DNA from: an uncultured Bacteroidales bacterium
Lineage (GTDB): Bacteria; Bacteroidota; Bacteroidia; Bacteroidales; P3
Direction: 5' to 3'
DNA length: 64,000 bases
Assembly (NCBI GenBank): GCA_905233475.1
Contig: CAJOEN010000016.1
Location: forward strand, 1-64,000
Part shown: positions 11,401-18,131 of the stretch, piece by piece
Layout of the letters: each line of letters starts with the position of its first letter
Numbering within the stretch: the stretch's first letter is position 1
Position numbers and translations under genes: made by a program
Notes under the pieces: generated by a model
Database searches by the model: none
What the model saw: the letters and a program-made list of their open reading frames with translations, nothing else
Told to the model about the DNA's origin: nothing

Positions 11401-11790
11401 AACATTCGTGAGCGTGTAGCCTTGTACAAGGAACTCAACGACCTTGAAACCGACGAGGAGCTGGATGCTTATAAAATGCGTATGAAAGACCGTTTCGGGA
11501 CACTGCCCAAAGCCACCGAAGAGCTTGTGGAAACGATAAAACTGCGGCGTTTGGCAAAGGCTATGGCTGTGGAAAAACTGATATTGCGTGAAGGCAAAAT
11601 GACCTGCAATTTTGTGGCCGACACCAAGAATCCGTTCTATCAGTCGGATATTTTTGGCAAGGTGATAGCCTACGTGCAGCAAAATCCCGGTAGCTGCTAC
11701 ATGAAAGAAAGCAAGGACAAACTAACCTTGACATTCAGCAATATACGCTCCATCGCCAACGGCATTTCGGTGCTGGAGAAAATAGTTTGA
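8437..11790 (+). CDS. mfd: Transcription-repair coupling factor
   Basis: CarD-like PGDYVTHIDHGVGRFSGL; helicase MDRLVCGDVGFGKTEVAIRAAF; IDEEQKFGVSVKEKLR; TATPIPRTL; TRCF C-terminal domain. Confidence 0.97.
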   Translation: MNELLQIYSSSGEVRHVAEALAGTNVRLRLKGMAGSMTAVVGAAVYNSLNNKTLLFVAENKERAFYLCNDMETLFGENGAELSEKRVLLFPSSSRKPYQYEEIENSNVLLRSEVLKRLNSGLHPIIVTYPEALSEKVASPKSLANNTININIGENLSIDGMLDLLMDSGFVRADFVVEPGQYALRGGIIDVFSFSSEHPYRVEFFGENVESIRTFDPVSQLSVRKMDTVAIIPDIEHNAKSQVSDTKVMLLQYLNSRDVVFVENLMFTAEKIGQDYGKAEQVFQNINATVEQLPLSELYATDKDFLANIMDVCVVEYGVSQYFIEARQVVFNSDVQPSFNKQFEMLTTSLNNYKEQSFSNFICVENARQRKRLEDIFTEMGMMDGIVEFLDFSLSQGFLDNSHKVLCFTDHQIFERYHKYKVKDFRDARESLTMKELFELKPGDYVTHIDHGVGRFSGLEKIEVNGRVQEAIRLIYKDNSMLYISIHSLHKISRYIGKDGVAPVLNRLGSPAWQALKQKTKQRVKDIAKDLIKLYAERKATKGFAFSADSYLQHELEASFLYEDTPDQYKATRDVKNDMESSTPMDRLVCGDVGFGKTEVAIRAAFKAVCDSKQVAVLVPTTILAMQHYNTFCERLQGMPCNIEYLNRFKTTKEKNKIFKDLAEGKIDILIGTHAITNAKVKFKDLGLLIIDEEQKFGVSVKEKLRQMKVNVDSLTLTATPIPRTLQFSLMGARDLSVINTAPPNRQPIQTELEVFSEETVRDAILYELSRGGQVFFVSNRVENLDSMADLVRRLVPDARIGIGHGQMEGERLERVLMDFIGGDIDVLVSTTIVENGLDIPNANTIIINNAQNFGLSDLHQLRGRVGRSNRKAFCYLLIPSFSVLTDEAQRRLRAIEEFSNIGSGFNIAMRDLDIRGAGNILGAEQSGFISEIGYDMYHKILNEAIEELKVTDFKELYSDELEEHSGFVKECMIQTDLEVLIPDDYVSNIRERVALYKELNDLETDEELDAYKMRMKDRFGTLPKATEELVETIKLRRLAKAMAVEKLILREGKMTCNFVADTKNPFYQSDIFGKVIAYVQQNPGSCYMKESKDKLTLTFSNIRSIANGISVLEKIV

Positions 11791-11813
11791 GTTTACTCGG
11801 AACTCGGAACGGT

Positions 11814-11841
11814 GCGGTCATTCGACAAGCTCAGGAACCGC
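11814..11841. repeat. REP-like hairpin containing TTCGACAAGCTCAGGAACC
   Basis: GCGGT cattcgacaagctcagga ACCGC inverted repeat in intergenic space. Confidence 0.4.
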
Positions 11842-11988
11842 GTTTTAGTTGAAAGTTGAAATCAGTTTACAATTCACGATCAACAATTCAACCTTCCTAT
11901 CACTGTTCACCCCGAAACCAACTTTTCAAAAGTTCAACATCCACTGTTGTGATTTCACGTTCTTTTTAGCACAAAAAAGTAAAAAAAA

Positions 11989-12049
11989 TATACCGATAGC
12001 GTTACAATAACTCAGTTTTTTACCCACTTAATGTAGTAGTATCTGCACT
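11989..12049 (+). repeat. 61-bp hairpin-ended repeat, copy 1
   Basis: TATACCGATA..TATCTGCACT termini around conserved core GCGTTACAATAACTCAGTTTTTTACCCACTTAATGTAGTAG; flanked by A run and T run. Confidence 0.9.
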
Positions 12050-12201
12050 TTTTTTCGATGAAAAAATGCCACTTTTTACACATTATATCCAAAAGTGGTT
12101 AGAGACAGATAATTCATGCAGATACTATTGTAATATATTTGAATTTCAATATATTAAAATAAAGATTAATCCTATGTCAAACACTTTATATCATAATAAA
12201 A

Positions 12202-12262
12202 CATGCCGATAGCATTACAATAACTCAGTTTTTTACCCACTTAATGTAGTAGTATCGGCATG
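12202..12262 (+). repeat. 61-bp hairpin-ended repeat, copy 2
   Basis: Perfect 10-bp terminal inverted repeat CATGCCGATA/TATCGGCATG around the same core; followed by T8. Confidence 0.95.
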
Positions 12263-12294
12263 TTTTTTTTCTTGGCAAATTCATATTTTATATG

Positions 12295-12302
12295 TATCTT
12301 TG
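12295..12302 (+). promoter_or_regulatory. Bacteroidota -7 promoter motif for the ATPase gene
   Basis: TATCTTTG, 17 nt before the ATG at 12319 and 33 bp after repeat copy 2. Confidence 0.55.
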
Positions 12303-12318
12303 CAAAAAAATAAACGAC

Positions 12319-13743
12319 ATGGAACACAACCCAAAAATTATCGGACGAAAATACGAACAGGAGGTGCTGCAACGCTGTGTAGAATCGCCACGAGCCGAAT
12401 TTATAGCCGTTTACGGCCGACGCCGAATTGGCAAGACATTCCTTGTGAAACAATATTTCAACGACACTTTCGATTTCTATATATCCGGTATTTACAAGGT
12501 TCCCCGTGCAGAACAGCTGAAACGCTGGCAGTCGCAACTGAACAAGTACAGCGGCAAGAAAAGAACGCGCCCCAAAGACTGGTTCGAGGCTTTCGACCAA
12601 CTGTGCGATTATCTTGAAACGCATAAAAAGAAAAAACGTCTGATTGTTTTCATCGACGAACTGCCGTGGATGGACACGCCGAAATCGGGTTTTCTGCGTG
12701 CTTTGGAGGTGTTTTGGAACACATGGGGAGCCAACCGCAACGGGTTGAAACTTGTTGTTTGCGGAAGCGCCACCACTTGGATGACCAACAAACTTTTGGG
12801 CGACAAAGGAGGGCTTCACAACCGCGTAACAAGGCCCATAAGGCTTGCGCCATTCACACTGAAAGAAACAGAACGGTATTTGAAAAGCATAGGACTGGAT
12901 TGGTCGCAAAGCGAGGTGCTCGACACATACATGATTCTTGGAGGCACTCCGTACTACCTTTCGTTGCTGCGTCCCGAACTAAGCCTGCGACAGAACATCG
13001 ACGAGCTTTTCTTTGGCCGCGACGCCGTGCTGAAATCGGAGTATGAATTTATGTTCAGCTCGCTGTTCAACAAGGCGCATGTATATCGCAATATCGTGGA
13101 ATGCCTTTCGAAGAAACTGAAAGGACTGACGCGAAGAAAACTTGTGGAAGAAATCAAAATTGCCGACAGCGGTATGGTTACCGAGGCGCTGGACAATCTT
13201 GAGAAATGCGATTTTATCCGTCGCTATAAGGCTTTCGGCAAGCGGCAGAGAGATGTGCTCTACCAACTTACCGACATGTACACGCTGTTCTACCTGCGTT
13301 TTGTGAAAGGCTACAACGGTATGAACGAAAAGGCATGGAGCAGTCTTTCCGACGGAAAACGCAACTCATGGGCAGGATACGCTTTCGAACAGGTGTGCCT
13401 GATACATTTGAACCAAATAAAAAAGGCTCTGGGCATTTTGGGCATTGCCAGCGATGTGTGTTCGTGGAACAGCGCAAACGACGAGCGTGGCGCACAAGTG
13501 GACCTGGTGATAGACCGCAGCGACAAAGTCGTCAATCTTTGCGAAATGAAATACACCACAGGCCGTTTCGAGCTGACACGGACTTATGCCGAATGGATGT
13601 CGGAACGCAAAGAACTGTTCCGCAACGAAACTTCTTCGAAAAAAACACTGCATCTGACACTTATCACACCTTACGGAATAGTGCCGGGGAAGAATACTTC
13701 CGCGCTTCAAAATATCGTAACAATTGGAGACCTTTTCGAATAA
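12319..13743 (+). CDS. AAA ATPase with DUF234-type (PD-(D/E)XK-like) C-terminal domain
   Basis: IIGRKYEQEVL; FIAVYGRRRIGKTFLVKQYF Walker A; LIVFIDELPWMDTPKSGF Walker B; C-terminal AQVDLVIDRSDKVVNLCEMKYT nuclease-like motif. Confidence 0.9.
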   Translation: MEHNPKIIGRKYEQEVLQRCVESPRAEFIAVYGRRRIGKTFLVKQYFNDTFDFYISGIYKVPRAEQLKRWQSQLNKYSGKKRTRPKDWFEAFDQLCDYLETHKKKKRLIVFIDELPWMDTPKSGFLRALEVFWNTWGANRNGLKLVVCGSATTWMTNKLLGDKGGLHNRVTRPIRLAPFTLKETERYLKSIGLDWSQSEVLDTYMILGGTPYYLSLLRPELSLRQNIDELFFGRDAVLKSEYEFMFSSLFNKAHVYRNIVECLSKKLKGLTRRKLVEEIKIADSGMVTEALDNLEKCDFIRRYKAFGKRQRDVLYQLTDMYTLFYLRFVKGYNGMNEKAWSSLSDGKRNSWAGYAFEQVCLIHLNQIKKALGILGIASDVCSWNSANDERGAQVDLVIDRSDKVVNLCEMKYTTGRFELTRTYAEWMSERKELFRNETSSKKTLHLTLITPYGIVPGKNTSALQNIVTIGDLFE

Positions 13744-13806
13744 TGGAATTTATTGCCTAAATGCTTTGTAAATAAGGGTTACGGGCAATTTACCATGCAA
13801 AAAAAA

Positions 13807-13867
13807 CATACCGATAGCGTTACAATAACTCACTTTTTTACCCACTTGATGTAGTAGTATCGGCACT
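13807..13867 (+). repeat. 61-bp hairpin-ended repeat, copy 3
   Basis: CATACCGATA..TATCGGCACT around core GCGTTACAATAACTCACTTTTTTACCCACTTGATGTAGTAG; followed by T9G9. Confidence 0.93.
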
Positions 13868-13903
13868 TTTTTTTTGGGGGGGGGAAAAGGCGAATAAGCA
13901 TAA

Positions 13904-13940
13904 AAAAAAGAGGCAAGTTTTTAAACTTGCCTCTTTTTGG
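13904..13940. terminator. Hairpin terminator
   Basis: AAGAGGCAAGTTT..AAACTTGCCTCTTTTT. Confidence 0.8.
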
Positions 13941-13976
13941 CTCCGCCGCAGTGTTAATTCAATGGCTAAACAATTA

Positions 13977-16900
13977 TCAATCAATAACTAACTTTCTTAC
14001 TGCATTGCCCACACGCACAAAGTAAATGCCTTTGGGCAAATCCCCTACGCTGAAAGTTAGAGTGCCGCCTGCGTTCTCCAAACGTCTTACCACCTTGCCC
14101 ATAGCGTTGATAATAAAGATATTGGCTTCGTTGCCAACGCCCTCCAACGTTACCTTGTCGCTTGCAGGGTTGGGGTAGAGAGTTATGCTTGTGTTCTCCG
14201 TCTCGGCAATGCCTTGATTTGAAGTGAAGAAGGCTATAAGTATAGTGTCCTGAGTAACGGTGATGCTACGAGGATTCTGCGTATTGCCATCGCTCCAACG
14301 GCTGAAGGTGTAGCCAGTATTGGCGGTGGCTGTAATGGTGTCTTGAGAAAGGTACGCAAAACGGCCGTTTCCAGTTACTGTTCCCATTGCAGTATCATTT
14401 GATGAAACAGTCACATTGTAATAGTTTGGATCTAAATAAAAAATAGCTGTAACTGTTATGTTCTGCCTAACGGTTATTATGCGTGTGTTTTGGTTGTTTC
14501 CATCGCTCCAGCGAGAGAAGATGTAGCCAGTGTTAGGTGTGGCTGTAATGGTATCCTTCGAAAGGTACGCAAAACGTCCACTGCCGGATACAGTCCCCAT
14601 TGCAGTGTCATTTGGTAAAACAGTCACATTATAATAGTTTGGACTGAAAAAGGCTGTAAAGGCTGTATCCTGTGTAACGGTGATGATGCGCGGGTTTGAG
14701 GTGTTGCCATCGTTCCACTGGCTGAAAACGTATCCGGTATTAGCGGTGGCTGTAAGCGTGTCCTGCGTAAGATACCCAAAAATACCGCTGCCAGAAACCG
14801 AACCTTTAGTGGAGTCATCAGAATGGACTACAACATTGTGCGCTACAGCAAAATATGCTGTGAATATTGTGTCCTGGGTAACTGTAATGACGCGTGGATT
14901 TTGTTTGTTGCCATCGTTCCAGCGAGTGAAAGTGTAGCCAGTTTCAGCTGTGGCTGTAAGCGTGTCTTGCGACAGATTTGCGAATCTGCCACTACCAGAA
15001 ACCGAACCTTTGGTGGAGTCGTTAGAATGGACAATGACATTGTGTTCTACAGCAAAATATGCTGTAAAAATAGTGTCCTGCACAACTGTAATTACGCGCG
15101 GGTTTTGGGTATTGCCATCATTCCAGCGAGTGAAAACGTAGCCTGTGTTAGCAGTTGCTGTAAGTGTGTCTTGCGACAGATATGCGAATATGCCACTACC
15201 AGAAACTGAACCTATATTAGTGTCGTTGGCGGACAGTGCCACGTTGTAGTAAATAGGGGTAAAAAAAGCAATGATATTTGTGTCCTTTGTGAGTGTAATG
15301 TTCCGTGGATTCATAGTGTCTCCATCGCTCCAATGACTAAAAGTGTAGCCATAGTTTGGGGTAGCACATATTGTCCAAGAAGAGGAGTTGCAGGTTGGTG
15401 CTGTTACTGTGGCCACGGTGCCTTTTACATTGTCATGCGACGACAGGTGATATTCATATTGAATTTCAATAAAGTTGGAGAACCCAGATAGCTGATTTCT
15501 ATACCACGCCAAAGCACCGCAAGGCACATAGACTGGTATACTTGTTGATACCCCACTAAAAGCATAGTTCCCTATAGTAGTGGATCTTCTCCTCATTGTT
15601 ACCGAGGTGATGCCAGTGCAACCAGAGAACGCAGAGTTTTCAATGCTTGTAACGGAGTTGGGGATGGTTACCGAGGTTATGCAAGTGTCCCCATAAAAAG
15701 CACGTTGTTTTATTGTATCAACGGTGTTTGGTATAACCAAGTTTGTTACAAGTTGGTTGTTTATGTATAGATTATGGCTGTAAGAAATCGGATTGGCGGC
15801 GTAACTATTAAAATCAATGTTGCACCATTGGGCTATTGTTCCAGTATAGTTTGTACGTGACGGGCCAGAGCAGTCATTGAACATAACAGTAGGAATTTTG
15901 CGTACATTGTTTCCAATAGTAATTGTGTTAATAGTACACCTATTTAAAGTATTACGAAAAGTATGCCCAGCTACATAATTCCCTAAATATCTCAAATTTG
16001 TGGCATTGTAATATAAAGTATCTACTCTGTCGTTGTAAAAAACAGATTCTCCCATGCTGTCCACAGCTCCGCCTATGGTTACCGAGGTAAGGCTCCCACA
16101 ATATTCGAACGCATTATTACCAATTTTTCTAACGGAGTTTGGGATGGTTACTGATGTCAAGCCCGAGCAACTAGAGAATGCATAATTGCCAATGCTTCTA
16201 ACATGATTGCCTATAGTTACCGAGGTGAGACCTGAGCAGTCAGAAAACGCAAAATTGCCAATGCTTGTAACGGAATTGGGGATGGTTACTGAGGTTAGGC
16301 TAGAGCAGGATTCGAACGCAGAATAACCAATGCTTGTAACTGAGTTTCCTATGGTTACCGAGGAGAGGCTTCCACAATTTTCGAACGCACAATTTCCAAT
16401 GCTGTACGCAGAGTTGGGGATGGTAACCGAGGTAAGACTCGAGCAGTGATAAAACGCTTTATTTCCAATGTGTCTAACGGAGTTGATGTTTATCGAGGTC
16501 AAGCTTGTGTCTCCACTGAACGCATATTCTCCAATTATATAAGCGGATAATATGGTAGCCGAGGTGAGGCCTGAGCAGTCAGCAAACGCTCCTTTTCCAA
16601 TACTGTAGGCGGATAAAGTTGCCGAGGTAAGGCCTGAGCATCTTATAAACGCATAATCTCCAATACTTGTAACGGAGAATATGGGAACAGAGGTAAGGCC
16701 AGTGCAGTCAGCAAACGCATAATCTCCAATGCTTGTAACGGAGTTGCCTATGGTTACCGAGGTGAGGGTAGAACATTGCCTGAACGCATTAGAAGGTATT
16801 ATCTTTACATTGTTTCCTATTATGAGTGTACTAATTCCACACTCATCAAAAACATAATGGTAACCGTTATTATTATTATAATTGTAGGAACCTGAATAAA

Positions 16901-18131
16901 TACAGCTATCTGCGTTGAAATACACTGTGGTTAAGTTACTATCGCCCGCAAAAGCACAATACTCTATGCTTTCCACTGCTCTGCCTATGGTTACCGAGGT
17001 AAGACCAGAGCAGCGAGAGAACGCATAATATCCAATGCTTGTAACGGAGTCAGGGATTGTTACCGAAGTCAATCCTCTACAGCCATTGAACGCAGAATTT
17101 CCAATACTTATAACGGAGTTGGGGATGGTTATCGAGGTCAAGCCAGTGCAACCGCTGAATGCATTATTTCCAATGCTTGTAACTGAGTTGGGAATGGTTA
17201 CAGATGTCAAGCGAGAGCAACCAGAAAACGCAGAATTTCCAATTCTATAAGCGGATAATATGTTAACCGAAATGAGGCCAGAACAGCCATAGAAAGCATA
17301 ATTTCCAACTGAGAGGCCTATCGTTGCCGAGGTGAGTCCAGTGCAGCCACAGAACACATATTCTCCAATGCTTGTAACGGAGTTGGGGATAGTTACCGAG
17401 GTCAAGCCCGTGCAGCCATAGAACGCATATTCTCCAATGCGTGTAACTGAGGTGTCTATAGTAACCGAGGTGAGGCTCCCGCATTTTTCGAACGCACTTT
17501 TTCTAATGCTTGTAACGGTGTTGGGAATTACAGCTTTGTGTATTTGTTTGTGTGCGGAACAAAGTGTTGTTTTTGAGGTATCCGAATAATAAAGGCTGTC
17601 GTAATAATAACCGTTTACACACAATGCACCCCAAGGGCTTCCTGTTGCAGAACCGTGATAGTTTATGTTAGGCATCAAATAAAAAGCATAAGTGCCGATT
17701 GTAGAAACTGAATTGGGGATGGTTACAGAGGTCAAGCGAGAGCAACCCGAGAACGCATAATTGCCAATTCTTGTAACAGAGTTGGGAATGGTTACAGATG
17801 TCAAGCGAGAGCAACCAGAGAACGCAGAATTGCCAATTCTTGTAACAGAGTTGGGAATGGTTATCGAGGTCAAGCCCGTGCAAGCATAGAAAGCAGTATC
17901 TCCGATGCTTGTAACGGAATAAGTTAGGCCATAATAAGTTACCGAGGAAGGAATTGTAACGCTATCAGAGTTTTGACTTTTGATGACACTCGTTACCGCC
18001 ACCCCATAAGGAGAAGCGTAGCTGGTAATAGTGTAATAAATTGTGTCGCCATTACTTACTTCGTAAAAGTCTTGCGCCCAAGCTGTAGAAAAACAAAGCA
18101 ATATAGCTATTATTAAGGGTATCTTTTTCAT
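13977..18131 (-). CDS. BspA-type LRR (LRR_5) / divergent InlB B-repeat surface protein with T9SS type A sorting domain
   Basis: Signal peptide MKKIPLIIAILLCFSTAWAQ; about two dozen SVTIPNSVTSIGNYAFSGCSGLT repeats; six GSVSGSG.FA.LSQDTLTATANTGYVFTRWNDGNTQNPRVITVTQDT repeats; C-terminal LYPNPASDKVTLEG...KGIYFVRVGNAVRKLVID. Confidence 0.95.
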   Translation of the reverse strand: MKKIPLIIAILLCFSTAWAQDFYEVSNGDTIYYTITSYASPYGVAVTSVIKSQNSDSVTIPSSVTYYGLTYSVTSIGDTAFYACTGLTSITIPNSVTRIGNSAFSGCSRLTSVTIPNSVTRIGNYAFSGCSRLTSVTIPNSVSTIGTYAFYLMPNINYHGSATGSPWGALCVNGYYYDSLYYSDTSKTTLCSAHKQIHKAVIPNTVTSIRKSAFEKCGSLTSVTIDTSVTRIGEYAFYGCTGLTSVTIPNSVTSIGEYVFCGCTGLTSATIGLSVGNYAFYGCSGLISVNILSAYRIGNSAFSGCSRLTSVTIPNSVTSIGNNAFSGCTGLTSITIPNSVISIGNSAFNGCRGLTSVTIPDSVTSIGYYAFSRCSGLTSVTIGRAVESIEYCAFAGDSNLTTVYFNADSCIYSGSYNYNNNNGYHYVFDECGISTLIIGNNVKIIPSNAFRQCSTLTSVTIGNSVTSIGDYAFADCTGLTSVPIFSVTSIGDYAFIRCSGLTSATLSAYSIGKGAFADCSGLTSATILSAYIIGEYAFSGDTSLTSININSVRHIGNKAFYHCSSLTSVTIPNSAYSIGNCAFENCGSLSSVTIGNSVTSIGYSAFESCSSLTSVTIPNSVTSIGNFAFSDCSGLTSVTIGNHVRSIGNYAFSSCSGLTSVTIPNSVRKIGNNAFEYCGSLTSVTIGGAVDSMGESVFYNDRVDTLYYNATNLRYLGNYVAGHTFRNTLNRCTINTITIGNNVRKIPTVMFNDCSGPSRTNYTGTIAQWCNIDFNSYAANPISYSHNLYINNQLVTNLVIPNTVDTIKQRAFYGDTCITSVTIPNSVTSIENSAFSGCTGITSVTMRRRSTTIGNYAFSGVSTSIPVYVPCGALAWYRNQLSGFSNFIEIQYEYHLSSHDNVKGTVATVTAPTCNSSSWTICATPNYGYTFSHWSDGDTMNPRNITLTKDTNIIAFFTPIYYNVALSANDTNIGSVSGSGIFAYLSQDTLTATANTGYVFTRWNDGNTQNPRVITVVQDTIFTAYFAVEHNVIVHSNDSTKGSVSGSGRFANLSQDTLTATAETGYTFTRWNDGNKQNPRVITVTQDTIFTAYFAVAHNVVVHSDDSTKGSVSGSGIFGYLTQDTLTATANTGYVFSQWNDGNTSNPRIITVTQDTAFTAFFSPNYYNVTVLPNDTAMGTVSGSGRFAYLSKDTITATPNTGYIFSRWSDGNNQNTRIITVRQNITVTAIFYLDPNYYNVTVSSNDTAMGTVTGNGRFAYLSQDTITATANTGYTFSRWSDGNTQNPRSITVTQDTILIAFFTSNQGIAETENTSITLYPNPASDKVTLEGVGNEANIFIINAMGKVVRRLENAGGTLTFSVGDLPKGIYFVRVGNAVRKLVID

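What the first reader, a model, noticed from the sequence alone, without database searches (positions are those of the whole stretch)
11989..13867. AAA-ATPase/DUF234-like gene bracketed by three copies of a 61-bp hairpin-ended repeat
Copies at 11989-12049, 12202-12262 and 13807-13867 have the same length and orientation, and the core GCGTTACAATAACTCAGTTTTTTACCCACTTAATGTAGTAG is almost invariant. Each has complementary ends (perfect CATGCCGATA/TATCGGCATG in copy 2), an A run before it and a T run after it. Two copies precede the ATPase and one follows it, and I saw no other copies in the window. The core conservation is more than a simple terminator needs. This could be a mobile or immigrant ATPase-nuclease cassette with ends recognised in trans, or a conserved structured RNA paired with the ATPase. 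This ATPase family is known for lineage-specific expansion without a well-defined function.
Basis: partly seen in the sequence, partly recalled or inferred. Interest (0 to 1): 0.72.

Follow-up and report, generated by a model that had tools for sequence, protein, structure and literature searches.

The report
Portable hairpin-plus-ATPase-nuclease gene unit
A gene for an ATPase fused to a DNA-cutting domain travels between bacterial genomes together with a DNA hairpin placed just before it (and sometimes a second copy after it), which suggests that a very common 'phage-defence candidate' family is really a small portable genetic unit.

Summary
The repeat is real: three copies at the stated places, none elsewhere in the 2.3-Mb assembly. 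The gene between them is a PDC-S27 ATPase (ATPase_2, winged helix, intact PD-(D/E)XK motifs), a family listed only as a phage-defence candidate. Relatives show that the repeat is a hairpin belonging to the gene. The near-perfect form has 21-bp arms with compensatory changes and a conserved loop. Across PDC-S27 genes of Bacteroidota, Fibrobacterota, Bacillota, Spirochaetota and a Wolbachia phage, a hairpin of similar shape but different sequence lies just upstream (57/84 genes against 16/236 control genes). In about 20 loci a matching copy follows the stop codon. Several copies 79-96% identical at unrelated sites share sequence only from the outer edge of the hairpin to the stop codon or right hairpin. 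The cassette is absent from a relative with the same neighbours (G045). ATPase-free Wolbachia phages keep a solo hairpin at the insertion point, and decayed copies keep the hairpin. I conclude that hairpin plus gene is a portable unit. That the ATPase-nuclease itself recognises the hairpin is inferred; a self-regulatory operator is the main rival. I found no earlier description of the hairpin.

The parts
11989..12049 (+). hairpin copy 1 (arms decayed)
   Evidence: does not fold
12050..12201 (.). spacer between copies 1 and 2; holds a partial inverted copy of the arms at 12115-12134 (minus strand ATTACAATAGTATCTGCATG)
   Evidence: read directly from the sequence
12202..12262 (+). hairpin copy 2, intact outer stem CATGCCGATA/TATCGGCATG; left end of the portable unit
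   Evidence: unit boundary inferred from relatives
12295..12302 (+). promoter-like TATCTTTG (Bacteroidota -7 type, TAnnTTTG), with TTGG at 12272-12275 as possible -33
   Evidence: pattern found; function inferred
12319..13743 (+). PDC-S27 gene: AAA/STAND-type ATPase (ATPase_2), winged helix, PD-(D/E)XK nuclease
   Evidence: Pfam PF01637 E 8.6e-14; PADLOC PDC-S27 E 8e-194; AF2 model pLDDT 90.7; PDB match 2qen
12415..12438 (+). Walker A, residues 33-40 (GRRRIGKT)
   Evidence: invariant or nearly so in 47 homologues
12655..12660 (+). Walker B D113 E114
   Evidence: invariant in 47 homologues
13387..13551 (+). nuclease motif residues E357, D395, E409, K411
   Evidence: invariant in 47 homologues; activity inferred
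13807..13867 (+). hairpin copy 3, downstream copy 63 nt after the stop codon (optional part)

Best explanation
The block is a portable unit made of a cognate DNA hairpin, a promoter and one gene for an ORC/STAND-like ATPase with winged helix and PD-(D/E)XK nuclease (PDC-S27), here with an extra hairpin on each side. SHOWN: the hairpin is a conserved partner of this gene family; hairpin plus gene is the stretch that recurs at unrelated sites; the right-hand copy is optional; solo hairpins and hairpins with gene remnants exist; the cassette can be present or absent between the same neighbours. INFERRED: the ATPase-winged-helix part binds the hairpin or dyad and the nuclease cuts there or at a matching site, so that the gene is copied or recombined next to a hairpin. 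That would give the two observed layouts, hairpin-gene-hairpin and hairpin-hairpin-gene. The logic resembles REP/RAYT pairs or integron cassettes, without their enzymes. In the window, copies 1 and 3 look like extra or decayed hairpins around an intact copy 2-gene unit that arrived between mfd and a BspA-like gene.
For: Repeat only at this gene in the own genome; same architecture around a 76% identical ATPase in G125; gene remnants behind the hairpin in G105 and G112. Direct repeats around the gene in 24/70 loci against 2/120 and 1/150 in controls. Upstream hairpin in 57/84 genes against 16/236 control ORFs; 18/26 in a second set. Unit boundaries at hairpin edge and stop codon. Unrelated neighbours. 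Empty site G125/G045. Wolbachia phages with and without the ATPase. Compensatory changes, 10 of 21 pairs. Patchy distribution, 35/190 genomes. Transfer between phyla in the tree.
Against: No transposition seen and no exact target site or duplication resolved. The downstream hairpin is missing in most loci. The hairpin sits next to the promoter, where an operator would sit. Arm sequences diverge quickly: similarity between units is high only above 70% protein identity. Distant homologues (about 25-28% identity, haloarchaea) lack this hairpin.
Confidence: 0.6

Rival explanations
1. The hairpin is a double-stranded operator: a long dyad bound by the winged helix of the ATPase to control its own promoter. 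The gene spreads by ordinary horizontal transfer, and the sharp boundaries only show that gene plus control region is what selection keeps.
For: Position directly upstream of promoter-like elements in many loci. Dyad symmetry with compensatory changes is also expected of an operator bound by a symmetric protein. Two tandem copies upstream in some loci. ORC/Cdc6-like fold with winged helix. Fairly fixed spacer of 13 or 17-18 nt.
Against: Matching copies a few nt behind the stop codon in about 20 loci. Solo copies (G062, G078) and relics (G105, G112) without a gene to regulate. ATPase-free Wolbachia phages keep a hairpin with compensating arm changes. Arms up to 25 bp, perfectly complementary (L077).
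Confidence: 0.28
2. The unit is a phage-defence gene, as catalogued; the hairpin is a sensor, decoy or RNA regulator of its nuclease, and mobility is that of defence genes in general.
For: Full-length PDC-S27 match. PDC-S27 is listed as a defence candidate found by embedding (PMC12988326). Intact nuclease residues. Copies on a phage and plasmids.
Against: No experimental defence activity is known to me, and the survey says validation is pending for most such candidates. The rumen survey calls PDC systems poorly associated with other defence loci (PMC13356809). It does not explain hairpins on both sides. Not exclusive of the best explanation.
Confidence: 0.2
3. The repeats are bidirectional transcription terminators that insulate the gene.
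For: A run before and T run after the copies in the window.
Against: Only 10 of 84 family hairpins have a run of five T at the 3' edge; loops are 13-18 nt; the upstream copy precedes the promoter; the sequence identity of the two copies is unexplained.
Confidence: 0.05
4. The repeats are ends of an unrelated insertion sequence or MITE that carried the ATPase along.
For: Mobility and solo hairpins.
Against: Hairpins are not multi-copy in the genome, differ from gene to gene, and are tied to this ATPase, its relics or its empty sites.
Confidence: 0.05

Closest known systems
PDC-S27 phage-defence candidate (PADLOC PDLC04984)
   Same: The protein is a full-length member; ATPase fused to a PD-(D/E)XK domain as described in PMC12988326.
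   Different: The catalogue and the two papers found treat it as a stand-alone gene; neither passage describes a hairpin, portable unit or solo hairpins.
REP/RAYT pairs (REPtrons) and IS200/IS605 elements
   Same: A gene bracketed by its own cognate palindromes in direct orientation; solo palindromes exist (established knowledge for REP; here).
   Different: No HUH/Y1 transposase; ATPase-nuclease instead. Palindromes are not amplified in the genome.
Integron gene cassettes with attC hairpins
   Same: One gene plus one imperfect palindrome as a portable unit, and gene flanked by like hairpins.
   Different: The hairpin is at the 5' side of the gene, not the 3' side; no attC core or integron integrase was searched for.
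Pyrococcus Walker-type ATPase PABY2304 (PDB 2qen)
   Same: Best structural match to the ATPase and winged-helix part.
   Different: 350 aa; the match covers about the first 370 residues and leaves the C-terminal nuclease domain unmatched.

Membership tests
PDC-S27 | full-length match to the PADLOC model | tested here: met
   E 8.3e-194, residues 6-473 of 474
PDC-S27 | ATPase plus PD-(D/E)XK nuclease residues | tested here: met
   Walker A/B and E357, D395, E409, K411 invariant in 47 sequences
PDC-S27 | anti-phage activity | not testable with these tools
   no assay; literature calls it a candidate
Pfam DUF234 (PF03008) | match above gathering score | tested here: not met
   Pfam scan lists ATPase_2 and other AAA models only
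REP/RAYT (REPtron) | Y1/HUH transposase of the RAYT type | tested here: not met
   the only gene of the unit is an ATPase-nuclease
REP/RAYT (REPtron) | palindromes dispersed in many copies in the genome | tested here: not met
   three copies, all at this gene
Integron cassette | attC hairpin at the 3' end of the gene | tested here: not met
   hairpin is at the 5' side; the downstream copy is optional
Integron cassette | integron integrase in the genome | not tested
   not searched
Insertion sequence with terminal inverted repeats | two obligatory ends in inverted orientation | tested here: not met
   copies are direct repeats, each a palindrome, and the right copy is often missing
Insertion sequence with terminal inverted repeats | target-site duplication | tested here: inconclusive
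   empty site found, but intergenic DNA too diverged to resolve the bases
Rfam structured RNA | match above gathering score | tested here: not met
   no match above gathering score in 11700-14000

The most novel reading that the evidence does not exclude
PDC-S27 genes are a previously unrecognised class of autonomous mobile element: a single-gene unit whose ATPase-winged-helix-PD-(D/E)XK protein recognises its own hairpin as a structure (cruciform or single-stranded fold) and moves the hairpin-gene unit next to like hairpins. Many annotated 'defence genes' of this family would then be selfish elements.
Probability: 0.3. Interest if true: 0.9.

Novelty: new variant of a known kind. Interest (0 to 1): 0.68.

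Why it matters
PDC-S27 is among the commonest predicted prokaryotic defence families: 3503 archaeal and 4562 bacterial systems in one survey (PMC12988326) and 2865 in rumen genomes (PMC13356809). Its function is unknown. If its bacterial members are hairpin-gene units, counts of 'defence systems' in rumen and related genomes are partly counts of portable elements. The cognate hairpin also gives a concrete substrate on which to test the protein.

Tried and rejected
(1) Scattered REP or MITE repeat in the own genome: rejected. (2) Rfam structured RNA: none above threshold. (3) Repeat in viral contigs by exact core pattern: none. (4) Empty site beside mfd in three same-genus genomes: the ATPase and repeat are not there, but neighbours differ, so no clean junction. 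(5) Second empty site at G026: flanking genes are 7 kb apart or on different contigs in relatives. (6) tRNA genes as targets: only 7 of 113 loci have one within 1.2 kb. (7) Terminator reading: 10/84 with a T run. (8) DUF4143 (PDC-S01) paralogues as carriers of the same kind of hairpin: 0/22, though five have short-loop palindromes. (9) Literature on DUF234, COG1672, DUF4143 and PDC-S27 with repeats: nothing on hairpins in the open-access library; most subscription papers and preprints are not covered. (10) Several of the 24 direct-repeat loci are unrelated repeats; about ten are the hairpin. (11) Hairpins at distant haloarchaeal homologues: not of this type.

Full report
OBSERVATION. The core pattern has no match in 100 shuffles, and the assembly (2.3 Mb, 60 contigs, 97.7% complete) holds no further copy. 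The first copy lies after mfd, the second directly upstream of the likely promoter of the ATPase gene (TATCTTTG at 12295), the third 63 nt after its stop codon. Only copy 2 still folds well. The three copies share the same mismatches in the arms, so they were probably copied from one another after the arms had begun to decay (inference).

THE GENE. The 474-aa protein matches Pfam ATPase_2 and, over its full length, the PADLOC model PDC-S27 with E 8e-194. AlphaFold2 gives a confident model (pLDDT 90.7). The best solved match is the Pyrococcus Walker-type ATPase 2qen, followed by ORC/Cdc6 and STAND ATPases. In 47 relatives Walker A, the DE of Walker B and the nuclease residues E357, D395, E409 and K411 are invariant, so an active nuclease is likely; that domain is inferred from its motifs. 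The genome has four more members at 41-52% identity, which fall in different parts of the family tree and therefore did not arise by recent local duplication.

THE REPEAT IN RELATIVES. Of 190 genomes of the family, five besides the own genome carry the repeat. In G125 it brackets an ATPase 76% identical to that of the window, at -126 and just after the stop codon. In G112 it stands before a gene of which only the last 27 codons are recognisable, and in G105 before a decayed C-terminal part (read from the sequence). In G062 and G078 it stands alone. In these genomes it is a near-perfect palindrome with two 21-nt arms and an 18-nt loop ending in ACCCAC. Counting pairs over 15 copies, 10 of 21 have changes on both sides, more than in any of 500 shuffles.

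A FAMILY-WIDE FEATURE. For 70 homologous loci with enough flank, 24 have a direct repeat between the 600 nt before and after the gene, against 2 of 120 shifted controls and 1 of 150 cross-locus pairs. Not all 24 are the hairpin, but about ten are, and each gene has its own: for example ACCATCCCCATAACTC/GAGTTATGGGGATGGT in Butyrivibrio, GTGGCGGAATCT/AGATTCCGCCAC in Spirochaetales, TGCTCCGTAACT/AGTTAGGGAGCA in Lachnospiraceae. A hairpin with a score of at least 10 and a loop of 8-20 nt lies within 220 nt upstream in 57 of 84 genes, against 16 of 236 other ORFs of the same loci, 0 of 46 window genes and 0 of 22 DUF4143 genes of the own genome. In a second set from other Bacteroidia families the figure is 18 of 26 (4 of 15 controls), with clearly matching downstream copies in at least five. 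Loops are mostly 13 or 17-18 nt, often with an A or T run in the middle. Only 10 of 84 hairpins have a T run at the 3' edge, so they are not terminators as a class. The sets contain some near-duplicates, so the counts are not fully independent.

THE PORTABLE UNIT. Among homologues 76-78% identical to the window protein, flanking genes are unrelated; only one pair of the loci compared (L037/L038) shares neighbours. Pairs with high nucleotide identity at different sites show where the shared stretch ends: L148/L149 91.6% from -116 to the stop codon; L086/L097 95.6% from -124 to +6; L147/L150 89% from -127 to +5; L094/L086, two copies within one Fibrobacter assembly, 94.9% from -124 to +1. The left end is the outer edge of the hairpin. 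The right end is the stop codon, or just past the right hairpin where both have one (L039/L046, L121/L122). Some pairs share more on the left: two hairpins (to -161), several hundred nt, or whole neighbourhoods. Between two convergent genes G125 has the cassette, while G045, with the same genes at 73% and 87% identity, has none; the intergenic DNA is too diverged to give the exact bases.

PHAGE AND PLASMID COPIES. In a Wolbachia phage WO the ATPase sits between the minor capsid gene and the decoration gene, preceded by two hairpins. Four WO phages without the ATPase have the same junction with a hairpin only, whose arms differ by compensating changes (ACCGCGG/CCGCGGT against ACCGCCG/CGGCGGT). 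In the WO stretches examined this hairpin occurs nowhere else. Either the hairpin was a landing site, or it was left behind when the gene was lost. Homologues with hairpins also sit on plasmids of Segatella, Phocaeicola, Butyrivibrio and Emticicia. In the tree Bacillota, Spirochaetota and Fibrobacterota lie inside Bacteroidota. Binning errors in MAGs account for part of this (L044, L045, L047 and L048 look like one locus), but the Butyrivibrio genome and plasmid and the WO phage are named records.

MECHANISM. Best reading: hairpin plus gene is a unit, and the protein that it encodes recognises the hairpin. The ORC-like ATPase with winged helix would bind the dyad or cruciform, and the nuclease would cut there, allowing the unit to settle beside a similar hairpin. 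This predicts both layouts seen (hairpin-gene-hairpin and hairpin-hairpin-gene). Recognition and cutting are not shown. The chief rival is an operator for autoregulation with ordinary horizontal transfer; it fits the place next to the promoter but not the copies behind the stop codon, the solo copies or the relics. A defence function is compatible with either.

WHAT IS KNOWN. PDC-S27 is catalogued as a candidate from guilt-by-embedding, with experimental validation pending for most such candidates (PMC12988326). That paper contains neither 'hairpin', 'palindrom' nor 'inverted repeat'. Searches of the open-access library for the family with repeats gave nothing; other literature could not be searched. 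The working logic resembles REP/RAYT pairs and integron cassettes, but the defining enzyme of the first and the position of the hairpin in the second are not met. The hairpin association was seen down to about 37% identity to the window protein and not in the haloarchaeal homologues checked.

Noticed in passing
whole assembly G000, L177-L199: 23 DUF4143 (PDC-S01-type) ATPase genes over the Pfam cut-off in a 2.3-Mb genome. Five of the 22 checked have long short-loop palindromes close to the start codon, and L178 and L180 show related palindromes on both sides of the gene.
   Followed up: partly
12115-12134: A partial inverted copy of the hairpin arms without the middle lies between copies 1 and 2.
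   Followed up: no
13876-13885: A run of about ten G directly after the T run behind copy 3; could be slippery in replication.
   Followed up: no
13977-18131 (minus strand): BspA-like leucine-rich repeat surface protein with a C-terminal sorting-type domain, convergent to the ATPase gene.
   Followed up: no
L094 5405-6397 against L097: Two Fibrobacter loci share 4 kb on the left of the ATPase, but 993 bp differ directly after the stop codon before the shared right flank resumes.
   Followed up: partly
L071, about 540 nt upstream and 250 nt downstream of the ATPase: tRNA-like fragments interrupted by hairpin sequence occur on both sides of the ATPase.
   Followed up: no
L253 and L255: Phocaeicola massiliensis plasmid OY726067 and faecal phage contig MT835483 match over 4.5 kb around the ATPase at 100% identity as reported: probably one phage-plasmid.
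   Followed up: no
L268, L269, L271, about 30 nt before the start codon: Haloarchaeal homologues share a different conserved motif, AAGTCATTATCG...TAATCATTATC, in place of the hairpin.
   Followed up: no
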